Positions 28,582 through 46,682 of a DNA stretch of 64,000 nt are shown here, piece by piece (the stretch's first letter is position 1; every line of letters begins with the position of its first letter). The notes under the pieces were generated by a model. The model was not told where the DNA came from. It made no database searches and worked only from the letters and a program-made list of their open reading frames with translations. Made by a program: the position numbers and the translations under genes. Origin of the DNA: Arthrinium phaeospermum (Eukaryota > Ascomycota > Sordariomycetes > Amphisphaeriales > Apiosporaceae); assembly GCA_006503535.1 (NCBI GenBank), contig QYRS01000010.1, positions 2,046,001 through 2,110,000 of the forward strand, in the 5' to 3' direction.

Positions 28582-29800
28582 ATGGGTGAAATTGAGGCAT
28601 TCGTTCATTTGTCCGAACGCCAAGGCGTCCAGTTGAATGGAATCGAACCGGCCAGGATTCCCGGGAGGGGGATTGGCGTCGTGGCCACGCGCTCATTAAA
28701 GGTACCGACGAAAGCCATTAGATCCGGCCTCTTCCCATTCTTCACCGACCATTCCCTTTAGTAATTGGAATGGTATACTGAAACTCGCTCTTCATCAGGA
28801 GGGAGAGGCCATCCTCGAGATCCCCATGGAAGCCGTCCGCAGTCTGCACTCTATATCAGAAACGGTATCGAGTCAGCTGCCCGCCGGACTACCCTTCCAC
28901 GGCGTCTTGGCTGCCGATTTAGCCCTGGACAAGAGCGCCGGCTTCGCATCTTGGAAAAAGCTTCTCCCCACCAGGACCGACTTCGCGGCCTCCATGCCCT
29001 TTACATGGCCGGAAGAACTTCAGAAACTTCTTCCCAAAGGCGCGGGCGAGATCGTACAGAAGCAGCACGCCAAATTCAAGCGCCAGTGGGGCGCCGTCGC
29101 CAAGGCTTTCCCGTCCCTGACTAGGGACGAGTACCTGTACTTCTGGCTGCTGGTCAACACCCGGACATTTTACCTCGAAACCCCGGAGCTGGAGGCGTTC
29201 CCGTGGGAAGACAGGCTGGCCCTGCTCCCTATCGCGGACCTGTTCAACCACGCCGACCAGGGCTGCCATGTCGCCTACTCGGCCGAGGAGGGCTACACGA
29301 TCACGGCCAGTCGCCGGTACGAAGCCGGGGAGGAGGTGTTCGCTTCGTACGGCGACCATTCCAACGACCTGTTGCTGGCCGAGTACGGCTTCGTGATGGC
29401 TGAGAACAAGTGGGACGCTGTCTGCCTAGACGAGGTGATCATGCCACGATTGAAGCAGGCCCAAAGGAAGGAACTGGAGAGCAACGGGCACGGAGGCCCT
29501 TACATGTTGGCTTCCGGATCAGAGCCTTCTCGCCCTTTGGTGGCAGTATTACAAATGCTCGCCTCTTCAGGTGAATCCTCGCCTGCTTCATACGATGACA
29601 CAGATGAGGTGCCGATACTGGACGCCGGGGCTGAAAACCTTCTGAAAGTGCTGCTCAACGAAGCTTCGGAGACAGCTCAACGGGTAATGCACAAAGTGCA
29701 TGATTTGCGGGTTGGGGAGCCGATGCAGCGAGACATGCTCTACCATCGCTGGCAACAAATAGAAAGCATCCTCTCACAGGCGATAGGTCGCTTCAATTGA
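28582..29800 (+). CDS. SET-domain lysine methyltransferase, RKM/SETD-type
   Basis: Exons 28582-28701 and 28799-29800 encode 373 residues; the 97-nt intron is phase 0. The N-terminal SET segment is GIEPARIPGRGIGVVATR, continued in exon 2 by EGEAILEIPMEAV. A long inserted helical region (iSET) follows. The SET-C region holds the hallmark DLFNHADQGCHVAYS (NH motif) and GEEVFASYGDHSNDLLLAEYGF (the GExxxxSYG pseudoknot and catalytic Tyr). A helical Rubisco-LSMT-like substrate domain follows to the end. This class usually methylates non-histone targets such as ribosomal proteins or elongation factors in the cytosol or nucleus. Specific target unknown. Confidence 0.9.
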
Positions 29801-31010: not shown

Positions 31011-31609
31011 CTTCTTGCTCTTCTTGGGGAGATTGCCATCGATCGTCAGGATAGGGTTGAATATTGCAACAATTGCTGATCTTCTGGCGTCGATAAGCTC
31101 CCCGCCCTGAGCACATTAGCTTCAGCAGCAGGTGCCAAACCTACAAGCTCTGGTCAAAATGGCAACACGAAGCGCGAACACGGGGACACTCACTGCTTGA
31201 ACACGAGCAATTGCCCTATCAAAATGCAGCTCTCGAAATTCAACATCCAACCGTTTGAAGCTAATTTAGATGCCCTGGGACTTTGACACGCATTCGTGAC
31301 CGAGCGCAATCATGGGTGGCTCTCACAGTCAAGTGCAATACAGCTGAGTGGAGCACAAGGGCATTCAGCTCGGCCTAAACCGCACCGCCGGCAATTATTT
31401 CAGCCCTATGCCTTCATGCAGGGCATCGCGCTTCGTGCATCCACGTGAAGAGCGGCGGGCACGCTTTCCAGCCCAACGTTTCGCTAGGGCGCCATTCCCA
31501 CTCCAGAAGCAAGTGCGGGGCAGGCATTAGGTGCCATTACCGAGCCGACATACTATCATCTCGGGGTGTCAAGGACGAGTTCTCGTCGCCAACGCCGTCG
31601 TCTCTCATC
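31011..31609. other. Upstream region of the HET-domain gene
   Basis: The frame of the HET gene stays open upstream to 31445 but reads as non-conserved Arg/His-rich text, so it is treated as leader. No other gene is seen. Confidence 0.4.
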
Positions 31610-33370
31610 ATGTGGCTGATTGATACGCGGACCGGCGTGCTGGTTTCCACCATAAACCCGGTCCCGGGTACGTATGTGATACTGTCGCACACGTGGGGCG
31701 CCGCCGAGGAAGAGATCACCTTCCAGGACTTCCAGCGCCATGGAATGGCAAGCCTCACTCCACCCGAAGGGGCCAAGGCCAAAGGGTTCGCCAAGATCGA
31801 GCACACGTGTTCCATTGCCCGCCGCCGTGGCCTCGACTTTGCCTGGATCGATACGTGCTGCATCGACAAGACGAGCAGCGCCGAGCTTTCCGAGGCCATC
31901 AACTCCATGTTCCAGTGGTACAAGGATGCCGCGTTCTGCATTGCGTATCTGCAGGACTTGCCGCCCGAAACGGACTCGTCTCCGCTCGAGACGGAACTTC
32001 CGAAGTGCCGGTGGGTGACCCGGGGTTGGACTCTGCAGGAACTGATTGCGCCCCGAGAAGTCGAGTTTTACGACGAGTCCTGGGAGTTCCGCGGGCTGAA
32101 GTCCACGCCGGCCACGACGCGGCTTCTGGCCGAGGTGACCGGCATCGATGCCGACATCCTCCTCGACAGCACGGACCTGGAAAAAGTACCCATCGCCCGG
32201 CGCATGTCGTGGGCGTCGACCCGCGAGACAACGAGAGTCGAGGACGAAGCGTACTGTCTGCTGGGAATCTTCAACGTGCACATGCCCATGATTTATGGCG
32301 AGGGGCGCAAAGCTTTCCAAAGGCTGCAGGAGGAGATTGCCAAGGACAGCGGCGACCTCTCGCTCTTGGCATGGACGACCTCCCCCTACGACGAAAACGA
32401 CGTCAACCGCGAAGTGTGCCCCCAAGGCCAAAGGTACCATGGGGTTTTCGCCACCTCGCCGATCTATTTCCGGTCGGCCCGCAACATAAAGCATCGCATC
32501 AAGAACTTCTGCGTCGAAAAGGAGTATATGGTGACGAACCGTGGCCTCAAGATCGAGACCGCCCTGGTCATGGACGAGTCCGGCAACGTGGTCTTGAACC
32601 TGGGCGTGTCGCATAGGGACAACTGGAGCCCGACCAATTCGGACGGGTGGAAGGGCATATATCTCTCCAAAACAGCCGACGGCTACGTCCGTTCAAGGCC
32701 ATGGTCACTCTACACTGCGCGGCACCGCCGGTACCTCGCAGACGCGCCCCCCACCGTCCATATCCGCAAACACGTCAGCCCGGCGGAGTCGCAACGGCTC
32801 GAGCAGCGGTTTGCCGGTGGCATACGCGTACGTACGCAGTCCCAGATCCTGAAAGTCGCACCGGTGCACCTCTGGGACCAGACTCGTCGGACCTTCATGC
32901 ACCAGGGCCGGGGCATCAACGCCTGGGTTGTCATCCAGCTCCCGAACCTAGTGCCCGAAAGCAGTAACGGCAGCGGCGCGCCAAAGGGAAAGGGGGCCCA
33001 GCCGAGGCCAACCCGGGCCATCGTCGCTTGCTCAACGATGGGCTACGAGGTCGATCAGGCCGGTCGGCCGGTGTGCACCATTTGGATCGAGGGCCAGGGG
33101 CCATGGCGCAATGCGCTGGGGTTCCTCGAAACGCGCAAGGAGATAGCGGACTACGTCATGGCTGATTACCTTGCCAATCTTATCGCGGCCACGAGCTCGG
33201 ATTTCTCGACCCGTTCGATGAGTGTGCCGTTTTTCGTTGACGGGGCGGGCAACGAGCAGGTTGTCGAAGCGATGCTGAGCGACTGCGAGATTGAGGGCAC
33301 TCGCAGGTACTTTCTCGATATAGCTGTAGAGCTTCGTCCCAAACAGATACCGAAAGAAGAGGAGTCATGA
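31610..33370 (+). CDS. HET-domain protein (heterokaryon incompatibility type)
   Basis: Single exon of 586 residues from MWLIDTRTGVLVSTI, the usual start of HET proteins; an in-frame upstream extension lacks the family pattern. The three HET blocks are clear: YVILSHTWGAAEEEITFQDF (about 22-41), KIEHTCSIARRRGLDFAWID followed by TCCIDKTSSAELSEAINSMF, and WVTRGWTLQELIAPREVEFY. The downstream MSWASTRETTRVEDEAYCLLG and MIYGEGRKAFQRLQEEI are the family's post-HET signature. The C-terminal 300 residues look like the ligand-like half seen in HET-E/HET-D relatives but carry no NACHT or WD repeats. The product is a cytosolic allorecognition/cell-death-type factor by family. Low repeat content and an intact frame suggest it is functional. 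Confidence 0.93.
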   Translation: MWLIDTRTGVLVSTINPVPGTYVILSHTWGAAEEEITFQDFQRHGMASLTPPEGAKAKGFAKIEHTCSIARRRGLDFAWIDTCCIDKTSSAELSEAINSMFQWYKDAAFCIAYLQDLPPETDSSPLETELPKCRWVTRGWTLQELIAPREVEFYDESWEFRGLKSTPATTRLLAEVTGIDADILLDSTDLEKVPIARRMSWASTRETTRVEDEAYCLLGIFNVHMPMIYGEGRKAFQRLQEEIAKDSGDLSLLAWTTSPYDENDVNREVCPQGQRYHGVFATSPIYFRSARNIKHRIKNFCVEKEYMVTNRGLKIETALVMDESGNVVLNLGVSHRDNWSPTNSDGWKGIYLSKTADGYVRSRPWSLYTARHRRYLADAPPTVHIRKHVSPAESQRLEQRFAGGIRVRTQSQILKVAPVHLWDQTRRTFMHQGRGINAWVVIQLPNLVPESSNGSGAPKGKGAQPRPTRAIVACSTMGYEVDQAGRPVCTIWIEGQGPWRNALGFLETRKEIADYVMADYLANLIAATSSDFSTRSMSVPFFVDGAGNEQVVEAMLSDCEIEGTRRYFLDIAVELRPKQIPKEEES

Positions 33371-35242: not shown

Positions 35243-37477
35243 TCACCACTCGAGGCATCTGAGGGGTGAGGGGGATGAACTTGCCTTCTTTCCTGTAGGA
35301 GTGATCGGACGTCTATTCAGATTGGACTGGCTTGTCGCTTGGAGAGGAGCAGGAAGGCCGCTGGCGCTAGCGCTACGTAGTTTTCTGCCACAATTCCTCC
35401 CAACTTCATTTGACATATTCATTGGGAGCTTCAATTGACTTTTAGCCTCCTCTGATACTCGTTGTCCATCCTCGAAGACTTTTGTGAAGGACTCGAGGTG
35501 CCCTTTAAGTTTTGCATTCTCCCTTTCCAATTTGATTCTCTCCGCCCTGCCCGCTTTCTTGTCGTTCTTCAGTTTTGCGATTTTCTTTTTCTGCTTCGTG
35601 CGCTCCGCCAGTAATATCGTAATGAACACTTCTGGGTTCGAATTCGGTAGGCCATCAAGATTGGAAGTCGAAGACAAGGCGGAGTCGGAAGATATGAGAC
35701 TCGAAGGCGAGGCAGGGAGATCCGGGGGTTCGGAAGTGGAAATCGCTGCTGTGCTGGTTGTGATTCCCAAAGGGCATGGGGAACTTCGTGGCGCGGAACT
35801 CGCGGGACACACGGACTGCGTCCTCGGAGATGCCGCGACCGGAGAGGAGGTAATGGTCCCTGGTTCAACCGATGACGACCCGCCTAGTGGTTGCGTTCTT
35901 GTCTGGGGTGTTTTGGTGACGAAGAAGTCCATTGGTCCCGGCTCCCTCTGTTCTCCGAACCGTGTGCGTTTCCCACTCGGCTCACCCTTTGCTTTTTTAC
36001 TAGAAGGATTTCGTTTTCGCCCTTTATTGGTGGGTCCCTGTTCGCCGTTCAACAATCTGTGGTATGCCAAAGGGCAAGCTTGTCGCACCAGCCACTCTGG
36101 GACCGGCACAGGGTCAGTTATCGCATAGTTCCTGGCAGCAGATAGGTTATCCGCGATATGGTTGAGCTTGAACCTGACAAGTAGACAAGGCCCTCTATCA
36201 TCGGGTTCGGGCTTTTCCAGCGCGTGTATGATACCTGAGGCGTCCATTCCCGAGGATAAGTAGGAGGGGAGAAGAGCAGGCGCCAACAGCCTAAGGAACG
36301 AAGTATTATCCCAGAGCTTCCTATCAAGGTGTTTTCGAGTGAAGTCTCTAAGGACTAACACGTCTACCTCGCCTCCCCACTCATCTTGCCATTTCTTCAA
36401 GTTTTGATCCTTCTCTGGAATTTCCGTACGGATCCCTTCCATGCACCAACGGATAGTCTCAGGGTAGGAAGATGTTGTTGTTTTGGAAAGCAGTTTAGCG
36501 GCGGCGGCGGACTCGTCTATGGCAACCTTACCCTTGACGTTCGTCATGGGAACAGTAGCGACACACGCTTTCCATTCACTCAATAGGGAGCCCAGATTGT
36601 GACCTGTGTGCGCCGTAGATATATCCCAGAGCTTATCACCGTGATGGGACTGGCCGATTCGGATGGCGAAATTGGTCCCACGCTTATCGACGCCTTTCCG
36701 TCCATGCCCAACATTAGTAAGTAGAGCCACTGTGAGGAGAACCTTCTGATCCAAGTGCTTATCGGGTGCTGACGCTTCGAGGTCGCCCGGAATGAATTCG
36801 TTGACTAGAATGACCTTATCGTCGGTCTTTTCATATTTCAATATAACCTTCGCGCCGAATAAGAAGGCATTGCTGTCGGTTGACAATACCGCGTCCACGA
36901 GACCGGCCTTGTTCATGGCGGAGCATTCTGCAATGGCGTCGGCTTGGGCGACATAATAAGGGATGCATAACTTCGGGAGTGCTTCTTTGAATACATCGAC
37001 TACGTCGTGGTAATCAATCCCGTCGCTATTCCCAATGTTTCTCTCCACACCCTTTCCCTTAACATCTGGCTTCTGCCCCGCCGCATTCGGTCCGGCTGGG
37101 GCCTGGGGAGGTAGGTCCTGGGACAGTTGTTGGGCCACAGGCCTTGTGGGGTTATCGAACACGTATAAGGCATCTATCCCAGCCCGCTTGAGGTGCAAAG
37201 CTTGATAATACAGGTTTGTCGCCACCACCTGGTTCATATCCTTGATCTTCTTGATGGCAGCTATGTGCCTGTCAATGAGTGGTGGTGCGTCAACAGCAAC
37301 TCTCAGGCGTTGCTTATTGTTCGATATGTGTCGGCTGCCGAGATGCCACAGAGCGGTCGGTTCCTTGTCGCGTTTATTATATGTCTTATAAATGTGTTCC
37401 CACACCCTAGGAGCATTAGTAACACGCTTCTGCGACTTATAAGTGAGGTGGGGAAGAGGGGAGCACGAACTCATCAT
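35243..37477 (-). CDS. XPG/GEN1-like protein, copy 1, active-site degenerate (probable pseudoenzyme)
   Basis: Single exon of 744 residues from MMSSCSPLPH; the open frame continues upstream but as non-conserved text. It has a GEN1/Yen1-type plan: XPG-N (RVAVDAP, Asp63; YVFDNP, Asp108), XPG-I (ECSAMNKAGLVDAVLSTD, FLFGAKVIL), a GEN1-like C-terminal domain ending PVPEWLVRQACPLAYHRL, then a long disordered Ser/Pro-rich tail with a coiled coil (RTKQKKKIAKLKNDKKAG). Compared with active relatives, the catalytic PGEAEAEC block reads AQADAIAEC (second Glu is Ile182), the DxD pair reads D201-S-N203, and the GGDY helix-hairpin motif reads NVGHGRKG. Metal-dependent cleavage is therefore unlikely, while DNA binding may remain. 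It is a paralogue of the genes at 40143 and 44809. The frame is long and intact, so it is not a simple pseudogene. Confidence 0.85.
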   Translation of the reverse strand: MMSSCSPLPHLTYKSQKRVTNAPRVWEHIYKTYNKRDKEPTALWHLGSRHISNNKQRLRVAVDAPPLIDRHIAAIKKIKDMNQVVATNLYYQALHLKRAGIDALYVFDNPTRPVAQQLSQDLPPQAPAGPNAAGQKPDVKGKGVERNIGNSDGIDYHDVVDVFKEALPKLCIPYYVAQADAIAECSAMNKAGLVDAVLSTDSNAFLFGAKVILKYEKTDDKVILVNEFIPGDLEASAPDKHLDQKVLLTVALLTNVGHGRKGVDKRGTNFAIRIGQSHHGDKLWDISTAHTGHNLGSLLSEWKACVATVPMTNVKGKVAIDESAAAAKLLSKTTTSSYPETIRWCMEGIRTEIPEKDQNLKKWQDEWGGEVDVLVLRDFTRKHLDRKLWDNTSFLRLLAPALLPSYLSSGMDASGIIHALEKPEPDDRGPCLLVRFKLNHIADNLSAARNYAITDPVPVPEWLVRQACPLAYHRLLNGEQGPTNKGRKRNPSSKKAKGEPSGKRTRFGEQREPGPMDFFVTKTPQTRTQPLGGSSSVEPGTITSSPVAASPRTQSVCPASSAPRSSPCPLGITTSTAAISTSEPPDLPASPSSLISSDSALSSTSNLDGLPNSNPEVFITILLAERTKQKKKIAKLKNDKKAGRAERIKLERENAKLKGHLESFTKVFEDGQRVSEEAKSQLKLPMNMSNEVGRNCGRKLRSASASGLPAPLQATSQSNLNRRPITPTGKKASSSPSPLRCLEW

Positions 37478-37845
37478 TAGTGCCCATTGTAACAGATGGA
37501 AAGCCCGCACAGGAAGCTTGGTAATTAGATATCGTGAAATAATGTGATGATGAGGTGAATTGAAAGACGAGTAATAGGGGATGCAGAGGAAGAAAAGACA
37601 CAGCCCAAGACGACCGCGGGGTAACAACATTAGGCAACAAGGGTAGGTAAGAAACAGCCCAAGCAACAGTATTATTGTGACCATAACCGCGCCCTGGGTC
37701 GCGTCGCGCAGTCACATGACCTTGCGACCGCCGCCAGCCCTAATAGCAGGTTCCAACTATTACCAGTCGTTTTGGTATAGCTGGTCTTGGCGTTAGCAGC
37801 GCGTTAGCAGCTGACATAGTCTATACTTAAAGAATAGCTACTCTA
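37478..37845. other. 5' flank of XPG-like copy 1
   Basis: This is the leader and promoter side of copy 1, running up to the TA that borders the transposon. An ATG at 37487 (MGTNDEFVLPSSPP) resembles the start of copy 2 (MNAKEFVPSRFPA) but is one frame away from the main copy 1 frame. Confidence 0.45.
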
Positions 37846-37876
37846 ACCGTGCGCACCCTTTAACTAAATATACCCC
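37846..37876 (+). repeat. Left terminal inverted repeat of the transposon
   Basis: 31-bp left end, beginning ACCGTGCGCACCCTTTAA, next to a TA target duplication. It pairs with 39676-39706. Confidence 0.85.
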
Positions 37877-39675
37877 CTGTAAAACAGTTATTTTAAGCCG
37901 TTTTAAAGTAGTATCGTATTAATATATATATTTAATTAATTAATTTAATAATAATAACGTAGTATATTTAATTAATTAAAGTTGGAATTCGTATTATATA
38001 TTTTCGAGAATAATATTTTTTATTTTTAACGTTATTTTATGTATAAAAGTGCTTATTTTATTCTCTTACGCCTTTTTTATTTTTATAAACTCTTTTTAAG
38101 CCTTTTTAATATTTAGTAAGTCGTAAAATACCTTATTAGGGTTAAGTTTAATTTATTTTTTTATATTAAGCTTTAAAGATTTTAATTAATATTTTATTTA
38201 GCATTATTTTTATTTTAAATCGGTTATTTTCGTAGTGTTTTAGTCGATTACGCGATCGGCTTTAGTAAATAAGTTATAAACCGATTTGTTGAATTGAACG
38301 TTATCTTATTGTTAAATTAATAATACTTATTTCTTTAAATTTGTAAATTTTTTTAATATTTTTTATATTTATAATAACTTTTTATCCTTTAGTTTAAGCT
38401 TTTTTTTAATTATAGTAGCTTTAAAAGTTTCGATTCGTTGTCTAGTACGGTCCCTGGGTTAAAGGGGTAAATATTAGTTATAAATTAGTTAATTTCGATA
38501 TTATATTAATAAAAAGCTTTTTAAAAAGCTTTATCGTAATATTTTAAGAATATCCTTTTATATATTGGTATTGATATTGATATATTTATAATATTTTTAA
38601 TTTTTTTTAAATAATAAGTTTTAAAAGGGTTAAAAGGGTTAATATTGCAGGGTTAGAGCTTATTCGAAGTATGGGCCGATAGGTATAAAAATTATATGTT
38701 ATTAATATAAACTTTTTATATAAATTTCGGATTAATATAAATTTTATAGTTATTTAATATAAATAATCGTTATTTATTTTTTTTATTCGGTTTAATTTTT
38801 AATAAATATACTTTTTTTAATTATTATTAAATAATCGTAGTATTGTTTTAATTAGAATTAATATTAATATATTTTTATTTTATTATATGTTAATTAAATT
38901 ATTAAATTTAAAAATTTTTATCGATGTATATAATTATTAGTATAAACTTTTTATTAAGAGTTATAATAAATTTTAATATCGTTATTTAATTAATTAAATA
39001 GCCGGTTTTTTAATATATTTTTTTAATTTTAAAGGTTTTTAAAACGTATAAAATCCTCTTTTCCCTTTTTTAAATGCCTACTTTGTTTATATTAGTAATA
39101 TTAATCGGTTTAATATTTTTTTTTTTTTTATTGCTTTATATTATTAGTAGAATTTAGTAATATTGTCGAATTTAATTAAATCGGTTTTAATAAAATGAAC
39201 GGCTTGATTAATTTTATTGTAAATTATTAGATAGCGGCGTATGAAGGTGTTAATTTAGTTTTTTTAATAATTTTTAAAGGGGCTTTAATTTAAAGGATAG
39301 ATTTAACGAATTTAAAGGCGTATTTTTTAATAAGAGCTTTATTGTTAACCTTTTTTTTAATATTTAAATAATTAAAAACTTTTTTTTTTTTTTATAAACT
39401 TTTATCGGTTTATTTTTATTTCCGATTTATTTAAAGCGCCGTCGGCGCGTTAACGAAGCGTTAAAAGTATTATATTATATTCGCGGGCGACTTTATAAAG
39501 TCCGGCGTTTTTATTAAATATGAAAATTATATTATTAACGTGGCTTTTATATTTAATTTCGAAATTATTAATTTCGAATTATATCGATATTATTATTAAT
39601 TTATTATAAATTTATAAAGTATTTTCGCGATATTATTATTTATTTTTAAAAGTAGTTTAATTTGGTGTTTTAATA

Positions 39676-39706
39676 GGGATGTATTCGTTTAAAGGGTGCG
39701 TACGGT
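39676..39706 (-). repeat. Right terminal inverted repeat of the transposon
   Basis: 31-bp right end, reading ACCGTACGCACCCTTTAA on the minus strand, followed by TA at 39707-39708. It matches the left end at 25 of 31 positions. Confidence 0.85.
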
Positions 39707-39708
39707 TA

Positions 39709-40142
39709 TTTGCTTAATAAAGCTTTAGCGTTGGCACCCATTTAGGCCAGCCTACTAAGCGTAGCTACCTTAAGCTTATATTCCGATCGCACTCTACCAA
39801 TTGTGCTGCCACACGAGATGCAGAACAATACTTCGGGGCAACCTTGAGCAAAAGTTTATTCCGTATTTGACCCTGAACTCGCGCCAACCAGATGGAAGAT
39901 ATAGAGTTGACTAATTAAAATTTCCGTAACGCCTGACCCTGGGTATATACATGCCATGATATCGTGCCAATCCCAACCCGACCAGATACCCGTTCCCGTC
40001 AAAGCAGTGCTCACTCTCGCTCACATTAATTCCATCTTCGCCAATCGTGATGTACCCAAATTCGAATCCAATCCATATCCTTTCCAAAAGCTTCCATATC
40101 AACCAGTGCTCAAAGCATTAGCGGTTTGTTTCTGAAAGACGT
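39709..40142. other. Spacer between transposon and XPG-like copy 2
   Basis: Normal-composition DNA resumes right after the TA. It is the 3' flank of copy 2. No gene is seen. Confidence 0.4.
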
Positions 40143-41468
40143 TTACGTATGTTTTCCTTTTTTGTCCAGCCAATCATTGATGCTTGTCTTTTCACTTTTA
40201 GCAGGTCCCGGCCGGGTCGGCTTCGGAACTGAGCTTGACTTGGCCGGGTTGGCCGAGTTAGCCAAGTTGGCTGAGTTGGCCGAGGTTTCGCCCAGAGCGG
40301 GCCGCATATAGTCGCTGATTCGACGATTCTGGTCTGTCTTGCCTTGGCATCTCTGCCTTTTCCCTCCCTTAGGGTTGGCTGGGCTTGCCAAGCTTGCTCG
40401 TTTGACTGGCTTGGCTGGCCTAACTGAGTTGGATGGGTTGACTGGGTTCCCCGAGGTTTCGTCCAGAACAGGCCGTGACTGGTCGCTGGTTTGACGTCCG
40501 TGGCCCGTCTTGTCTTGGCCTCTCCGCTTTCTCTCTTCCTTGTATAATTGGATGGCCGCCTGCTTGGGGAGTGTTTCTGTGGTAGGAAGAGACTGAGCGA
40601 TGTTAGGATATTTAGCCTCGAAGGCCTGAAGGAGACGTTTCTTCCAATCGTCGATACAGTCCCACTGGTTGCTGTTTACTATCGCCGCCAGCTCGTGGCC
40701 ATAGCGAGATGCGCCAATGTCGAAGGCGATGGCCGGGCCACAAGACTCGACGCCAATGGAGAGAATATTAATTGCAAGAAAGCAGTTTGGAATGGAGAAT
40801 TTATCGGGCCTTGCCGACCTCAGGCCCTCCTCCTTAAGTTCCTTGACCATAACGACACCGTCCAGGGTCTTCTCGTGGTACAAGACATGTTTTCCTCCGA
40901 ATAAGAAGACATCACTGTTGTTGGACATCACCGCATCCACACGACCAGCCGAGTGCAAGGCGGCACATTCCGCCACAGCTTTGCCTGGAGCGTCGCAGAA
41001 AGAGAAACCCTCCTTCTCGAGGCGTTCTTTAGTGAGGTCGGCTATACGTTGATGGTCGATCCTCTCATCCCCGTCTCCTGTCTCGTCGCCCGTTCCGTCG
41101 GTATCAGCAGCAGAAGATGGTGCCGACGAATCGAATATGAACATAGGCTGTTTCCCGGCTTTTCGAATATTCATCGCGTGATCGAGCAGGTCTTTTGCCA
41201 CCACAACATTCTTCTGACCGATTTCAATCTTATTTTTCATTATTCTTATGATCCCTTCGATGAATGATGGGACATCAACGGCGACTCGCATACGTTGATG
41301 GCTCTTGCCATCGATATGTTCGGTGCCGATTCGAGATAAAGGAACGGACTCCACGATGTTGGATATCTTAAACAGATGGCTCCATAGACCGGGAACCCTT
41401 GAATAACCGTTAGCTTGTGGCTTTGACCTAGCGGGGAAGCGGGACGGCACGAACTCCTTGGCGTTCAT
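40143..41468 (-). CDS. XPG/GEN1-like protein, copy 2, active-site degenerate and truncated
   Basis: Single exon of 441 residues from MNAKEFVPSRFPARSK; the frame upstream has only a TTG. It keeps the XPG plan (VPGLWSHLF; RMRVAVDVP with Asp65; MFIFDSS with Asp113; AVAECAALHSAGRVDAVMS; VFLFGGKHVL). In the catalytic block the two Glu are Lys163 and Val165 (APGKAVAEC), the first DxD aspartate is Asn184 (SNNSD, with Asp186 kept), and the GGDY loop is shortened to LSIGVESCGP. The GEN1-type C-terminal domain is absent. Instead there is a Pro/Ser/Asn-rich tail made of two imperfect repeats (TSDQSRPVLDETSG and ISDYMRPALGETSA units), with a 9-bp tandem repeat in the DNA. Probable non-catalytic DNA-binding paralogue; paralogous to the genes at 35243 and 44809. 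Confidence 0.83.
   Translation of the reverse strand: MNAKEFVPSRFPARSKPQANGYSRVPGLWSHLFKISNIVESVPLSRIGTEHIDGKSHQRMRVAVDVPSFIEGIIRIMKNKIEIGQKNVVVAKDLLDHAMNIRKAGKQPMFIFDSSAPSSAADTDGTGDETGDGDERIDHQRIADLTKERLEKEGFSFCDAPGKAVAECAALHSAGRVDAVMSNNSDVFLFGGKHVLYHEKTLDGVVMVKELKEEGLRSARPDKFSIPNCFLAINILSIGVESCGPAIAFDIGASRYGHELAAIVNSNQWDCIDDWKKRLLQAFEAKYPNIAQSLPTTETLPKQAAIQLYKEERKRRGQDKTGHGRQTSDQSRPVLDETSGNPVNPSNSVRPAKPVKRASLASPANPKGGKRQRCQGKTDQNRRISDYMRPALGETSANSANLANSANPAKSSSVPKPTRPGPAKSEKTSINDWLDKKGKHT
40208..40290. repeat. 9-bp tandem repeat coding the copy 2 tail
   Basis: Imperfect 9-bp units of the type ttggccgag follow each other in frame and encode an (N/P)-(S/L)-A periodic tract in the tail of XPG-like copy 2. 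Because the period is a multiple of three, unit gain or loss does not shift the frame. Confidence 0.75.
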
Positions 41469-42188
41469 TGTGGTGGAAGGCAATTTGTACGCCAACGTGT
41501 ATGCTATCAGCTTGAAAAGATGGCTTGGAACTACATGTGTGTAGCTAGGAGAGGGCCAGTAAGCGGAAGAGAACTGATTCCTGGATAGATTATATAGAAA
41601 TTATTTAATGTGCACGAGAAAGTAGACGGAAAATTCAGGCAGCGAGTGTTAGAAACGCGGTCGAGTTCTTGCAACGCGTTAAGTGTACCCCCACGCCCCG
41701 CGCCCTGCGCCCATGATGATACAGCTATTAGTAAGCTAGCATGTACGATGCCCAGGCATCTGGACTCGCCCATCGCCCGAAGACGCAGCAGTGTGTCATT
41801 CTTGTGGGTATTACATCGTATTACTCATACAAACACGCCATCGGAGAGGTCCCTCGTGCCAAAGCAGGTTTTAGATCTTTCTCCAAGATCCGTATCTTGA
41901 CGGTCGCGGCCGACGATCGAACCACTCTGTCCCGTGCTCCGGTCAACTGGAACGTGAAGTGCAATCGGCATACAGAATCAATCCCTGTTGTTCCGCTTCC
42001 CCTCCCGCTGCCTAGCTCTGGGAATCTGCCTTGCTCTGGTTCGCACCCCACTTACAGGGCTGTCTCTGCGCATCGGAGCTCACGCGGGCAGATACCGCTT
42101 CTTAGGTGGTTACAGTTTTAATTGCAGGAGCTCAAAAGGTGCATGGCCTAGGTACCAATACGAGGCTTAGCATCAGGCCAGGTACATC

Positions 42189-42220
<32 letters not shown>

Positions 42221-43740
42221 GGTGTGGCCTCGTTCATCATGACACAGCCCTGGGCGGTGCATGTGACAAGAGTAAGTAGTTCATTCTATCGTCTTTTGGG
42301 GCCCGCTATCTGCCCTACTCGTTGCGTTAAGACATTTCAACAACAATTGTTCATATGGTAGAGAAATATGGAGAACGTCCTTGTTCGATCAGCCGCTGTG
42401 AAAGCTTCTCTCGTTGCAGTGTCCTGATGCGGATGGACTAGCAGGCGGCCGCAGGAACAAACCGTCTTACCTAGGAGACTTGACCGGTTTATTCCCGTTG
42501 AGGCTTGGCTAGCTGTTCGTCTCCCAAGGTGACATTCGAAGATCGACAGGAGCAACGCAGCTGCCAGCTGCCGTTTCAGCAAGGTTGATCCCGTTCTTCC
42601 CCGCCCTTTCACCAATGGTTTCGACATGTTGAGCTTCTGACAGTGGGTGCAAGTGACCTCTGTGGTCGCGGCAAACAGGAACTGATGCCGTGAACCGCGG
42701 CGAAGGTGGGTTCTGTTAAGGATGTAGAGTTGAGAAGAACTACTTCCTCTACACTCCTTCACTTGCCGCTGTGTACTCAAGTATGTACAGATATGTACAT
42801 CTATGTACCTAGCTAAGCCCTGCCGCAAAATTTATCCTTCAGTCGCCTCACCACATTGTACCAAAGGCCTGACAGAAATATGGGTATCAAATGGAGAACA
42901 GGGTAAAGCAGCCGCTCTTGGTGCTATGGTAATACTGACAGGAGGCCCTTGCCTTAGCTGGCAAACATGGTTGATTTCAGTTACTTGCTGGATCTTGCAT
43001 GACACAATAAATCTGCAGGGTAATTTGGCAGGAGGCGTGGGATTTGACAGTCTGTTGATGTCAGTCAGTCCCAAATGCCGGTGTATTTGGGCCGTCAAAT
43101 CACATGGGGAGTGGCATGCTTTCTTCATGCTCCTACGAACAAATATTTTCAGCATCAGGAATGGCTAGGTAATCAGAAAATCTGGAATGCTCCAAGCATG
43201 TCGGTTTAGTAGCTTTCGGTAAAAAGTCATCCGTTTGTTGCCCATCCATTTACTGGCACGCTGTTTGCTCTCTAGCCATTTGGCCGTCAAGCCCATCCTG
43301 GCTGCAGTCGACCGTATTTCTGCTGAACGGCACGGAAAGAACGATCAGTCAATCAGGCGACCCACCACATTACGAGATGATGAAGAGGAAAGAGCAAAAT
43401 CAGCAGGAAACCTTCCAGATGGACTGGAGTTCTTTCCGTTTGTTAGGCAGTCACATGGCTCCTTCCCCAATGGCGACTTCCAAAACAGCTACCTCTCCCA
43501 CAACAGCACCCACAACCGGCCAGAGTCACGAGGTTATCGAATCTCCAAAGCTTAGGTATTTTCCCGGTATGACAATTGAATAAGCTCGTTCATGAACAGT
43601 CCTTGTATATTGTCCACCGTCTACCAATCCTCGTCAGTTCGGCTGTCTTTTGTCACGATTGAGTACATCAAACCCTCGAACATCACATCGTTTCGCGATC
43701 ACCACGCAGCGCATCCTGACCCGAACCAATACCTTTCACG
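41469..43740. other. 2.3-kb gene-poor stretch with a GA microsatellite
   Basis: No supportable gene. Frames up to 163 codons (minus strand, 42337-42828) show no family pattern. The only clear structure is the (GA)n tract at 42191-42219. Confidence 0.45.
42191..42219. repeat. (AG)n microsatellite
   Basis: A near-perfect AG dinucleotide tract of about 29 bp in non-coding DNA. Confidence 0.95.
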
Positions 43741-44304
43741 ATGGCCAACGGAAAACACGTTCCCTTCGACGCCGCAGTTGAGACGCGAACATCCTTCATG
43801 TTCCCTTGGCTGCACAAGCGAGTCGTCGATGCTATCCATGGCCAGATCGACGAGGTCACTTTCCACAAGGAGGGACGGGACAGCGAGGCCCACGAGAAGT
43901 ATGAAACATTCATCATGGGCAAGTTCACCTGCACCAACACTCTCTGTTCCAAATCAGCATGGAGTAGCAAGAAAGTGAACATCATCATCCGGCGCTTCAC
44001 CGATGGAGAGCAAAAGCTAGCCTACAACGCGACTGTTTTCAACCAACGGTGCAAGTCGTGCAACGCCTTGGGCACCTTCTCGATAGACCAGAGATGCTAC
44101 GTGAGCCGGGTTGCCTATCGCATCCGAAGCTGGGCAGGAGTAAACCAAGAGCGAGCACCGTACAACTTCACCGAGACCAGCCGACCTCACGAGGAGGACC
44201 TGTGCGAGGGTTGCAAGAGAGGCCATTGCCAGCGAGGTGACTCTCAGAGAAGCCGAACAGTAGTAGTTCGTGGCGGCGAAGTGTTGTTTATCAATTGTGT
44301 ATGA
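43741..44304 (+). CDS. 3CxxC-type zinc finger protein
   Basis: Single exon of 187 residues from MANGKHVPFDAAVE. It matches the fungal/animal 3CxxC zinc-binding domain: FTCTNTLCSKSAWSSKKVNI, IIRRFTDGEQKLAYNATVF, NQRCKSCNALGTF, CYVSRVAYRIRSWAGV, and the closing HEEDLCEGCKRGHC. The Cys-x2-Cys pairs at CKSC and CEGC, plus the CTNTLC motif, supply the metal ligands. The family includes receptor-transporting proteins in animals, but fungal members are uncharacterised. The gene lies between XPG-like copies 2 and 3 on the opposite strand. A functional link is unproven. Confidence 0.9.
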   Translation: MANGKHVPFDAAVETRTSFMFPWLHKRVVDAIHGQIDEVTFHKEGRDSEAHEKYETFIMGKFTCTNTLCSKSAWSSKKVNIIIRRFTDGEQKLAYNATVFNQRCKSCNALGTFSIDQRCYVSRVAYRIRSWAGVNQERAPYNFTETSRPHEEDLCEGCKRGHCQRGDSQRSRTVVVRGGEVLFINCV

Positions 44305-44808
44305 AAATTGGCAGGGTCATACAGGAAGCGTTGATGTCGTGGTGTCAAGACTGCTGTCCGGAGACTTGAGGACTCGGTACAATCATGTTCACCAACTCTA
44401 GAGCACGGATTTGGGAGGTCAGGTTGGTGGTTTGTGGACTCGATATAATGGTGGCTCATTGGCTGGGTGCAGCTTCGACTCTTCAGTCTGCAATCCCTAT
44501 TTTAGCTTGATCTAGTAATGGTCTTTGATCCCAGGTAGATCGGACCTAGACAGTGACGTACCGCAATACATCGCAGCGTGGTTCTATGCATGCTCTGGAA
44601 CTTATGTACCATGAAATTGTGACTTGTTGTTGAAACCGCACCGATGACAATTTGTATATTCAACTCGTTCGTGTACTCATTAGAAATTGTTCGCATATAT
44701 CTCGTTCCTAATTTGCCAACGGCAGCATACTATATCAAAACATTCCGCGAGACCCCTGCCTAATCTCGGGACAACTGTACAGAATTATTATCCTGCAACT
44801 ACCTAGTC
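44305..44808. other. Convergent spacer, no gene seen
   Basis: Between the 3CxxC gene and the 3' end of XPG-like copy 3. AT-richer than the exons, with no coding signal. Confidence 0.4.
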
Positions 44809-46682
44809 TTAATCGGTAAGATCTATGATCTCTCTAGCAACTGAAGTATTGCGTGTCGCTAGCCCCAAAGGCGACTCCGCCGCCAATGCCTTCTTTGCCC
44901 TGGTTATATCTGGGGTGGTAGAACCCGCAGTTGGGGCAGCAGTCTGCGGCTTAGCAGCCGTTACGCCCCGATTCGGGGTGATGGATTGCAAGGGCGCTCG
45001 TCCCGCAGGGTGTTTAGGTGTCACCACGCATCGACTGCTGTCGGCAGCCGAGGGCTTGGGCTTGGGTGGCCGGCCTGGGCCGCGCTTGGGGATGGTCGTA
45101 TTACCCGCGTCAGCTGCGGCTCGGTCCTTGGGTGGACGGCCTCGACCGCGCTTGGGGGGTGCACCCTCGGATTGGTCCCCTTCTGTCGCCTTCCTCTTGG
45201 GGTCACTGACGGGGGCCTCGGTTGGCGGCTGAAAGAGGGCAGGACAGGCTTTCTCCACGAGCCAGCACGGAAGCCACTCCAGGTCCTCCTCCATCTCCTC
45301 CTTCTTGAGGTTCCCCTTGTAGTCGTCCACGATCGGCTCGGCCATCACGTCCACGGGGACGACGACGGCATGGTTGGGCTTGACCCGGATCTCTTTCGCT
45401 GCCCCTTCTCCCTTGGTCTTGATCTTCTGGACGGTGACCCATTTCGACCCGTCCGTCCCCGACGCTATGCAGCGGAGAAGCCTGCGGACCAGGAGGCAGA
45501 GGACGGTCGTCCTCACAAACTTCACCGCAAAGTGCCGGTATTTCCAGTCGAAATAGACCCGGGTGAACTGTCTCAGACCGGGGACATCGACGTCCTTGCT
45601 CCAATCGATTGCTGGTGTCGTCGTGCTCTTCTGCATCTCCCTCATGTAGTATCCGACGACGGCCAGGTCGGGAAAGTGGTCGCCCAGAGCGGTGGCAAGT
45701 GCGAGTTCCTTCCTTCCGAACTTGCCCTCCTTCAAGTTCTTGGCGAGACCACTTCTCCAAACCGGGAACTTCTCCTCCCACAGCCCTTCGTTTGTGGCCA
45801 CGGTCCAGAGCAGACCGGCATGATTAGATGTGCCAATCCTGAGGGCGAGCTCCGGGCCGCAGCCCGGGAGGCCGGTGCTGTAGTCGCCGCCGGCGAGGAT
45901 AGCCATGGCGAAGATGACCCTCTGCGTCAGGGGAGGCTTCGCCCTCTTTAGGTCCTCCATCTTGAAAACCTCCACCATGCAAACCTGGTTCTTCGCATTC
46001 AGCCCCCGCAGCACGGTCTGGGCCCCGAACAAGAACGCGTCCCCGTCGGTCGACATGACCGCGTCCACGAGCCCGGCCCTCTCCAACGCCGCGCACTCCG
46101 CCTCGGCCTCCCCGGGCGCCTCCAGGGTCGGGACGCCCAGGTAGCCGAGGAACTGCTTCGATAGAAACTCGATGTGCCGGAAGTCGCCCTCGCGCTGCTG
46201 CTCGGCCTCGGATCGCAGCTGGCACGCGGCCGACGGCGTGTAGGGCTTGTAGGGTCCCGCCGCGCTCTGCTTCTGGCGCTTCATCGGCGGCTTGCCCGGC
46301 CCGTCGTACACGTACACGGGCTCGACCCCCGCGGCGAGCAGGTGGCAGACGTGGTAGAAGAGCGTGCGGGTCGGATGGTTCATGCCGCCGTACTTGTCGG
46401 CGCGGGTGACGTGGTCGGTGGCCGTCTTGTACTTGTAGACGTCGATCGGGGCGTCGACGGCGATCCGCATCGGCTGGCCCGTCTTCGCGATGTGCTCGGC
46501 GTTGAGCTCCCACAGGCGCACCGTCCGGCCGGGATAGTCCGCGGTCACGGCTTCCCAGAATCTGGGGGTTTGGACCGGTTAGCCATCATCGGCATCCTCG
46601 CGGTCAGTAGATCGACTACGTAGTGTGACGGGGGATGATAGAGAGCGCGCTAGGATATATATACTCACCCTTTAACCCCCAT
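44809..46682 (-). CDS. XPG/GEN1 (Yen1)-type structure-specific nuclease, copy 3, with AT-hooks
   Basis: Two exons: a 14-nt first exon at 46682-46669 (ATG GGG GTT AAA GG) and 46561-44809, which together give 588 residues. Phase 2 closes and restores the canonical XPG start MGVKGFWEAV. All seven acidic metal-binding residues are present: Asp41 (RIAVDAP), Asp91 (VYVYDGPGKPP), Glu156 and Glu158 (APGEAEAEC), Asp177 and Asp179 (STDGDAFLFG), and Asp231 (AGGDYSTGLPGCGP). A GEN1-type C-terminal domain ends LPCWLVEKACPALFQP. The tail has two AT-hook motifs (KRGRGRPPK and KRGPGRPPK). By family this should cut flaps, bubbles or Holliday junctions in the nucleus. It is the only one of the three copies with an intact active site. 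Confidence 0.92.

What the first reader, a model, noticed from the sequence alone, without database searches (positions are those of the whole stretch)
35243..46682. Cluster of three divergent XPG/GEN1-like paralogues, only one with an intact active site
Three same-strand genes within 11.4 kb share the GEN1/Yen1 plan but are highly divergent. Copy 3 keeps all seven acidic residues, while copies 1 and 2 lost different subsets yet retain long open frames (744 and 441 residues). Yen1 is normally a single-copy resolvase, so a local family of one enzyme plus two apparent pseudoenzymes is unusual. It could be a regulated or antagonistic set (non-cutting binders with a cutter), or a defence against mobile DNA given the adjoining transposon. 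The system idea is inference.
Basis: partly seen in the sequence, partly recalled or inferred. Interest (0 to 1): 0.88.

Follow-up and report, generated by a model that had tools for sequence, protein, structure and literature searches.

The report
Dead and live resolvase gene trio
In an Apiospora-like fungus, three neighbouring genes are relatives of the enzyme that cuts crossed DNA strands; one keeps all its cutting residues and carries a motif of the kind that grips AT-rich DNA, while the other two have lost the cutting site and yet are kept in related fungi, which suggests that a non-cutting protein of this kind has a job.

The parts
35243..37406 (-). Copy 1, exon 2: nuclease-dead GEN1-like protein with GEN1-type core and a predicted chromodomain-like C-terminal part
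37471..37487 (-). Copy 1, proposed exon 1 (MGTNDE), with a 64-nt intron at 37407-37470
   Evidence: branch-point-like TACTAAT in the intron; donor GTTCGT is unusual, so the model is tentative; orthologue P0121 starts MDTNGLWEH
37844..39708 (.). AT-rich DNA transposon with imperfect 64-nt inverted ends, RIP-scarred, between copies 1 and 2 (context, not part of the system)
40143..41468 (-). Copy 2: nuclease-dead GEN1-like core (441 aa) without the chromodomain part
44809..46561 (-). Copy 3, exon 2: GEN1-like nuclease with all seven active-site acids
46669..46682 (-). Copy 3, exon 1 (14 nt; protein start MGVKG), intron 46562-46668
   Evidence: GTGAGT donor, CCCCAG acceptor; annotated relatives P0001-P0003 start MGVKGFWD
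45118..45156 (-). Copy 3 AT-hook 1 (PKRGRGRPPKDRA)
   Evidence: motif by sequence only
45052..45090 (-). Copy 3 AT-hook 2 (PKRGPGRPPKPKP)
   Evidence: motif by sequence only
44815..44829 (-). Copy 3 C-terminal SUMO-interacting-type motif IIDLT
   Evidence: motif by sequence only

Best explanation
The trio is a tandem family of an auxiliary GEN1-like nuclease clade that is distinct from the fungus's own YEN1. Shown: copy 3 has a complete active site, two AT-hook sequences and a C-terminal SUMO-interacting-type sequence; copies 1 and 2 have a predicted GEN1 fold but lack metal-binding acids, and the orthologues found in other Apiospora-type genomes have the same key losses. Inferred: copy 3 is brought to AT-rich DNA by its AT-hooks and cuts branched DNA there; copies 1 and 2 bind the same kind of junctions without cutting and so shield them, or pair with copy 3 and turn a two-strand cut into a nick. 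In a genome with RIP-mutated AT-rich repeats, such DNA would be a natural place for an AT-hook nuclease.
For: Separate YEN1 with GEN1_C on C3; it groups with other YEN1s, whereas the copies lie in another clade (93/98), copies 1 and 2 together 100/99; each dead clade, placed without the other, joins the Apiospora copy-3 group (SH-aLRT 98 and 94; four long or outlying rows also left out). Key losses shared by both orthologues found for each dead copy. Unselected-mutation simulation: copy 1 since its split from P0121 should carry 9.1 stops on average, 0 of 200 runs had none; copy 2 since its split from P0126 4.7, 1 of 200. Copy 2's fold is 92.2% and 68.0% identical where copy 3 is 89.1% and 53.4% in the same two genomes. 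Fold models. AT-hooks in 20 of 23 clade proteins against 6 of 97 YEN1-type. Chaetomium GEN1 with single active-site carboxylates removed binds DNA almost normally but cuts poorly, and forms a dimer in the crystal (PMC4695337, passages).
Against: No binding, expression or dN/dS data. Copy 1 evolves faster than copy 3 (68.2% against 80.2%), and its fold is no more conserved than its tail (p = 1 and 0.71). The union of the dead clade with the Apiospora copy-3 group is weak in the full tree (86/50). Copies 1 and 2 lack the AT-hooks and the C-terminal motif, so they need not sit where copy 3 sits. Copy 2 lacks the chromodomain part and the loop with the seventh acid beside the H2TH motif, which may weaken DNA binding; Yen1 without its chromodomain fails in yeast (PMC5039027, passages). 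The search showed all three copies in no other genome, within its limits.
Confidence: 0.42

Rival explanations
1. Copies 1 and 2 left DNA behind: like MKT1, an XPG/PIN-fold protein known for work in translation control, they became protein- or RNA-binding scaffolds; copy 3 is an independent nuclease.
For: Loss of catalytic acids, no AT-hooks, and (copy 2) no chromodomain part; an MKT1-like gene exists in this genome (L032; label mine, from its translation); the Mkt1-Pbp1 complex regulates translation of an mRNA in yeast (PMC6811503, start of abstract).
Against: The copy 1 model matches GEN1 through to the chromodomain end; a dead and an active-type copy appear to share a contig in three other genomes, which a fully independent function would not require.
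Confidence: 0.3
2. Copies 1 and 2 are slowly decaying duplicates with no present function.
For: Active-site losses; long stem branches (0.9 and 1.37 changes per site); copy 1 shows no fold-versus-tail contrast; the C-terminus of copy 2 differs from its orthologues'; since the A. marii split the stop test has no power (294 of 1000 runs with none).
Against: Open frames against the longer-term simulations; substitutions clustered as in copy 3 (block variance ratio 1.60 and 2.65 for copy 1, 2.34 for copy 2 against P0126, against 1.55 and 2.44 for copy 3; copy 2 against P0125 not significant, 0.83); copy 2 at least as conserved as copy 3 in two genomes.
Confidence: 0.15
3. The locus is a fast-turning conflict locus (allorecognition, or defence against mobile DNA).
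For: Clade found in few genera; fast divergence; HET-domain frame about 1.9 kb from copy 1; transposon between copies 1 and 2.
Against: HET genes are common in such fungi (recalled); the transposon is RIP-scarred and has a close copy elsewhere; in the 20 neighbouring frames scanned, of the 59 frames of 150 aa or more, no family found ties these genes to defence.
Confidence: 0.08
4. Copy 3 is simply the genome's ordinary Yen1.
For: Its best PDB sequence match is Chaetomium GEN1 (5cnq, 146.8 bits).
Against: A separate YEN1 with GEN1_C at C3:2500255-2501622, placed among YEN1s.
Confidence: 0.02

Closest known systems
GEN1/Yen1 (XPG/Rad2 family Holliday-junction resolvases)
   Same: Fold, active-site layout in copy 3, C-terminal SUMO-interacting-type motif in copy 3, chromodomain-like part in the copy 1 model
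   Different: Separate clade beside the genome's YEN1; D-G-D instead of D-V/A/I-D signature; AT-hooks; two members without the active site
MKT1-type XPG/PIN-fold proteins
   Same: XPG-related fold with a role other than DNA cutting (recalled, and PMC6811503 abstract start)
   Different: An MKT1-like gene is separate here (C11, label mine); copies 1 and 2 fall in the GEN1-like clade and lie beside an intact paralogue
FEN1, EXO1, RAD2/XPG
   Same: Same fold family

Membership tests
[quoted passage not shown]
   24.1 and 74.2 bits over the cut-offs 22 and 24.9
GEN1/Yen1 orthologue (copy 3) | Seven active-site acids | tested here: met
   All seven in register; list of residues from PMC5039027 and PMC4695337 (passages)
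GEN1/Yen1 orthologue (copy 3) | GEN1_C domain (PF18380) | tested here: not met
   Not listed for copy 3 at E <= 1; genome hits are the C3 YEN1 (90.5 bits) and a sub-threshold one on C2 (15.7 bits). 4 of 23 clade members carry it in the precomputed column
GEN1/Yen1 orthologue (copy 3) | Groups with YEN1s in a tree | tested here: not met
   Own YEN1 groups with YEN1s; copy 3 lies in the other clade (93/98)
GEN1-like nuclease fold (copies 1 and 2) | GEN1 fold | tested here: met
Active GEN1-like nuclease (copies 1 and 2) | Active-site acids | tested here: not met
   Copy 1: three lost and one E to D; copy 2: four lost
AT-hook protein (copy 3) | GRP core flanked by K/R | tested here: met
   Two cores; none in copies 1 and 2, own YEN1, RAD2 or EXO1
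Holliday-junction resolvase activity | Cuts four-way junctions | not testable with these tools
   Needs purified protein
Neutral pseudogene (copies 1 and 2) | Stops or frameshifts, uniform substitution, dN/dS near 1 | tested here: inconclusive
   No stops in the frames; uneven substitution in 3 of 4 comparisons; fold-versus-tail contrast in copy 2 only; dN/dS not possible without orthologue DNA

The most novel reading that the evidence does not exclude
A dedicated three-part junction-processing module: an AT-hook-guided GEN1-like resolvase specialised for AT-rich (RIP-mutated, heterochromatic) DNA, kept in check by two purpose-made dead resolvases that occupy junctions or form half-dead dimers, so that cutting becomes shielding or nicking. 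It would be a eukaryotic resolvase controlled by its own catalytically dead paralogues.
Probability: 0.22. Interest if true: 0.82.

Novelty: new variant of a known kind. Interest (0 to 1): 0.6.

Why it matters
Known control of Yen1/GEN1 works through phosphorylation and nuclear import (PMC4172962, start of abstract) and SUMO contacts (PMC8986097, passages). A retained set of dead paralogues beside a live one would add control by competition, and the AT-hook clade raises a testable question: do fungi with RIP keep a special resolvase for AT-rich repeats? Among the rows listed by five searches of the paper library (20 of 593, 20 of 33, 12 of 34, 10 of 67 and 0 of 0 papers) I saw no title or abstract start that describes this clade or dead GEN1 paralogues; the unlisted rows and most subscription papers were not seen.

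Tried and rejected
Copy 3 as the ordinary Yen1: rejected. RIP as the direct cause of the dead sites: copy 2's E120 to K and D141 to N and copy 1's D143 to N are G-to-A type changes, but each of these codons is preceded by C, not T (read by eye), and the three coding regions have negative RIP index, so I do not claim it. Against that, the 1-kb windows at 46001 (start of copy 3, GC 0.617, index +0.24) and 37001 (edge of the transposon, +0.09), and 8001 (+0.06), are positive. More copies: none found in the genome beyond the three and the YEN1, RAD2 and EXO1 loci, apart from three matches at E over 0.1, nor in the window (one 32-residue match at E 0.34). Fold-versus-tail contrast for copy 1: negative. 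A first domain-versus-tail comparison overstated the contrast because orthologue tails were not collinear; one search replaces it. Joint-conservation counts share the query and the tree, so I give them no weight. PIP-like motif (PMDFFVTK in copy 1, RISDYM in copy 2, LDRYVRVTK in own YEN1): a regex hit only, not used. FEN1 was not found by PF00752, PF00867 or one DNA pattern, so the family census may be short. Protein searches scored only the candidates sharing most words (7995, 7993 and 7996) and one search lists 120 of 166, so absence of a copy from a species means little. In structure searches, families not listed are not excluded.
Full report
What is there. Three minus-strand genes between 35243 and 46682 each carry an XPG_I domain above the Pfam cut-off. 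Copy 3 needs a 14-nt first exon and a 107-nt intron, which gives the family start MGVKGFWEAV and 588 residues; copy 2 is an uninterrupted 441-residue frame; copy 1 most likely has a short first exon and a 64-nt intron with an unusual donor, giving 726 residues. Annotated relatives of copy 3 start in the same way (P0001-P0003). The three are 27-33% identical to each other where they align.

Whose genome. For copy 3 the five best matches are named Apiospora (77, 78, 59, 91 and 51% identity; the 91% one covers 55%), for copy 2 the best is A. marii (90%), for copy 1 Apiospora sp. TS-2023a (65%). I take the genome as Apiospora-like, nearest A. marii among those found. No tool names it.

Not the genome's Yen1. 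A whole-genome search finds six XPG_I places: the three copies, RAD2 (C4), a YEN1 (C3) and EXO1 (C13) (the RAD2 and EXO1 labels are mine from the translations). Only the C3 gene has a clear GEN1_C domain (90.5 bits). FEN1 was not found. In a 56-row tree (26 of 27 clade and dead-copy proteins, P0009 left out because it lacks the catalytic region; 24 of 97 YEN1-type rows; own YEN1, RAD2, EXO1; the three copies) own YEN1 lies among Xylariales YEN1s (order recalled), and the copies lie in another clade of 29 rows (93/98) with proteins named Seiridium, Pestalotiopsis, Coniochaeta, Echria, Podospora, Diplodia, Lasiodiplodia and Lecanosticta. Copies 1 and 2 form one group with their orthologues (100/99); its union with the Apiospora copy-3 group is weak there (86/50). 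Because both dead branches are long, I placed each without the other, also leaving out own EXO1, P0022, P0024 and P0100: each then joins the Apiospora copy-3 group (SH-aLRT 98 and 94, quick trees).

Active sites. Of 97 YEN1-type proteins, 95 show all seven acids, one is gapped at one column (P0071) and one has P at the first (P0061). Of the 23 clade members not counted as dead, 13 show all seven, 9 are gapped or truncated at one to six of them with no substitution, and one fragment (P0024) has D199 to G. Copy 1 reads D, D, D, I, D, N, G. Its orthologues P0121 and P0122 share I, N and G and have also changed the second acid to N; P0121 has N at the third. Copy 2 reads D, D, K, V, N, D, gap, exactly as P0125 and P0126. 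The shared losses therefore predate the split of these lineages.

Are the dead copies maintained? With unselected mutation to the tree's protein distance, copy 1 since its split from P0121 gains 9.1 stops on average (0 of 200 runs with none), copy 2 since its split from P0126 4.7 (1 of 200 with none); since the A. marii split the test has no power (294 of 1000 with none). The simulation uses one assumed transition bias and ignores insertions and deletions. In matched genomes the fold of copy 2 is 92.2% identical against 89.1% for copy 3 (A. marii, where P0004 is a partial protein, so only part of the fold is compared) and 68.0% against 53.4% (contig of 172,699 bases, if P0006 is the copy 3 orthologue); copy 1 is 68.2% against 80.2% (TS-2023a). 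Fold against tail: copy 2 differs (p = 0.0074 and 0.0091), copy 1 does not (p = 1 and 0.71). Substitutions are clumped along copy 1 (ratios 1.60 and 2.65) and along copy 2 against P0126 (2.34), as in copy 3 (1.55 and 2.44); copy 2 against P0125 shows none (0.83). I conclude that copy 2 is under clear protein-level constraint and copy 1 under weaker constraint that at least keeps its frame open.

Linkage. In no other genome did I see all three copies.

What marks the clade. The middle residue of the D-x-D pair is G in 22 of 23 members (one gapped) and V, A or I in 97 of 97 YEN1-type rows. AT-hook cores occur in 20 of 23 (misses P0021 and P0024, both short, and P0022) against 6 of 97 YEN1-type, one of which lies in the nuclease domain. 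A VIDLT-type sequence near the C-terminus is in 12 of 23 and 63 of 97, so it is shared with YEN1; [quoted passage not shown] Copies 1 and 2 and their four orthologues have neither.

Mechanism. Shown: anatomy, losses, conservation; predicted: fold. From the literature: removing each active-site carboxylate of Chaetomium GEN1 singly leaves DNA binding almost unaffected but impairs cleavage (PMC4695337, passages; those were single changes, here three or four at once); human GEN1 D30N loses cleavage, and deleting the Yen1 chromodomain is about as severe as an active-site mutation (PMC5039027, passages). Inferred: dead copies bind junctions without cutting and compete with, or pair with, copy 3. 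Copy 1 is the better candidate because its model keeps the chromodomain part; copy 2, which lacks it, may instead be a partner protein. The AT-hooks suggest AT-rich targets; this genome has some (the element at 37844-39708: GC 0.19, RIP index 0.88).

The transposon. It has imperfect 64-nt inverted ends and a close copy in two pieces (84% and 87%) on C2. It looks like an ordinary RIP-scarred insertion.

Verdict. Real, more than chance, and more interesting than an odd duplicate: a dead-and-live set in a GEN1-like side branch, kept in related fungi. The regulatory mechanism is untested.

Noticed in passing
G000 whole genome: FEN1 was not detected by XPG_N, XPG_I or an EAEAQCA-coding DNA pattern; it may be split by introns, withheld or missing from the assembly.
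   Followed up: partly
31445-33370 (+): HET-domain (heterokaryon incompatibility) frame about 1.9 kb from copy 1.
   Followed up: no
43741-44304 (+): 3CxxC zinc-ribbon frame on the opposite strand between copies 2 and 3.
   Followed up: no
37844-39708: AT-rich DNA transposon with inverted ends and strong RIP scars; close copy in two pieces at C2:4625909-4628972.
   Followed up: yes
P0024 (contig of 3,468 bases): A further clade member with D199 to G, perhaps another loss of the active site; a short fragment.
   Followed up: no
P0014 and P0016 (Coniochaeta sp. 2T2.1): Two closely related members of the AT-hook clade under one species name, so copy number may vary outside Apiospora too.
   Followed up: no
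copy 1 residue 498, copy 2 residue 384: PIP-box-like or YEN1-like motif present in the dead copies and their orthologues but not seen in copy 3.
   Followed up: partly
28826-29800 (+): SET-domain frame beyond the HET frame.
   Followed up: no
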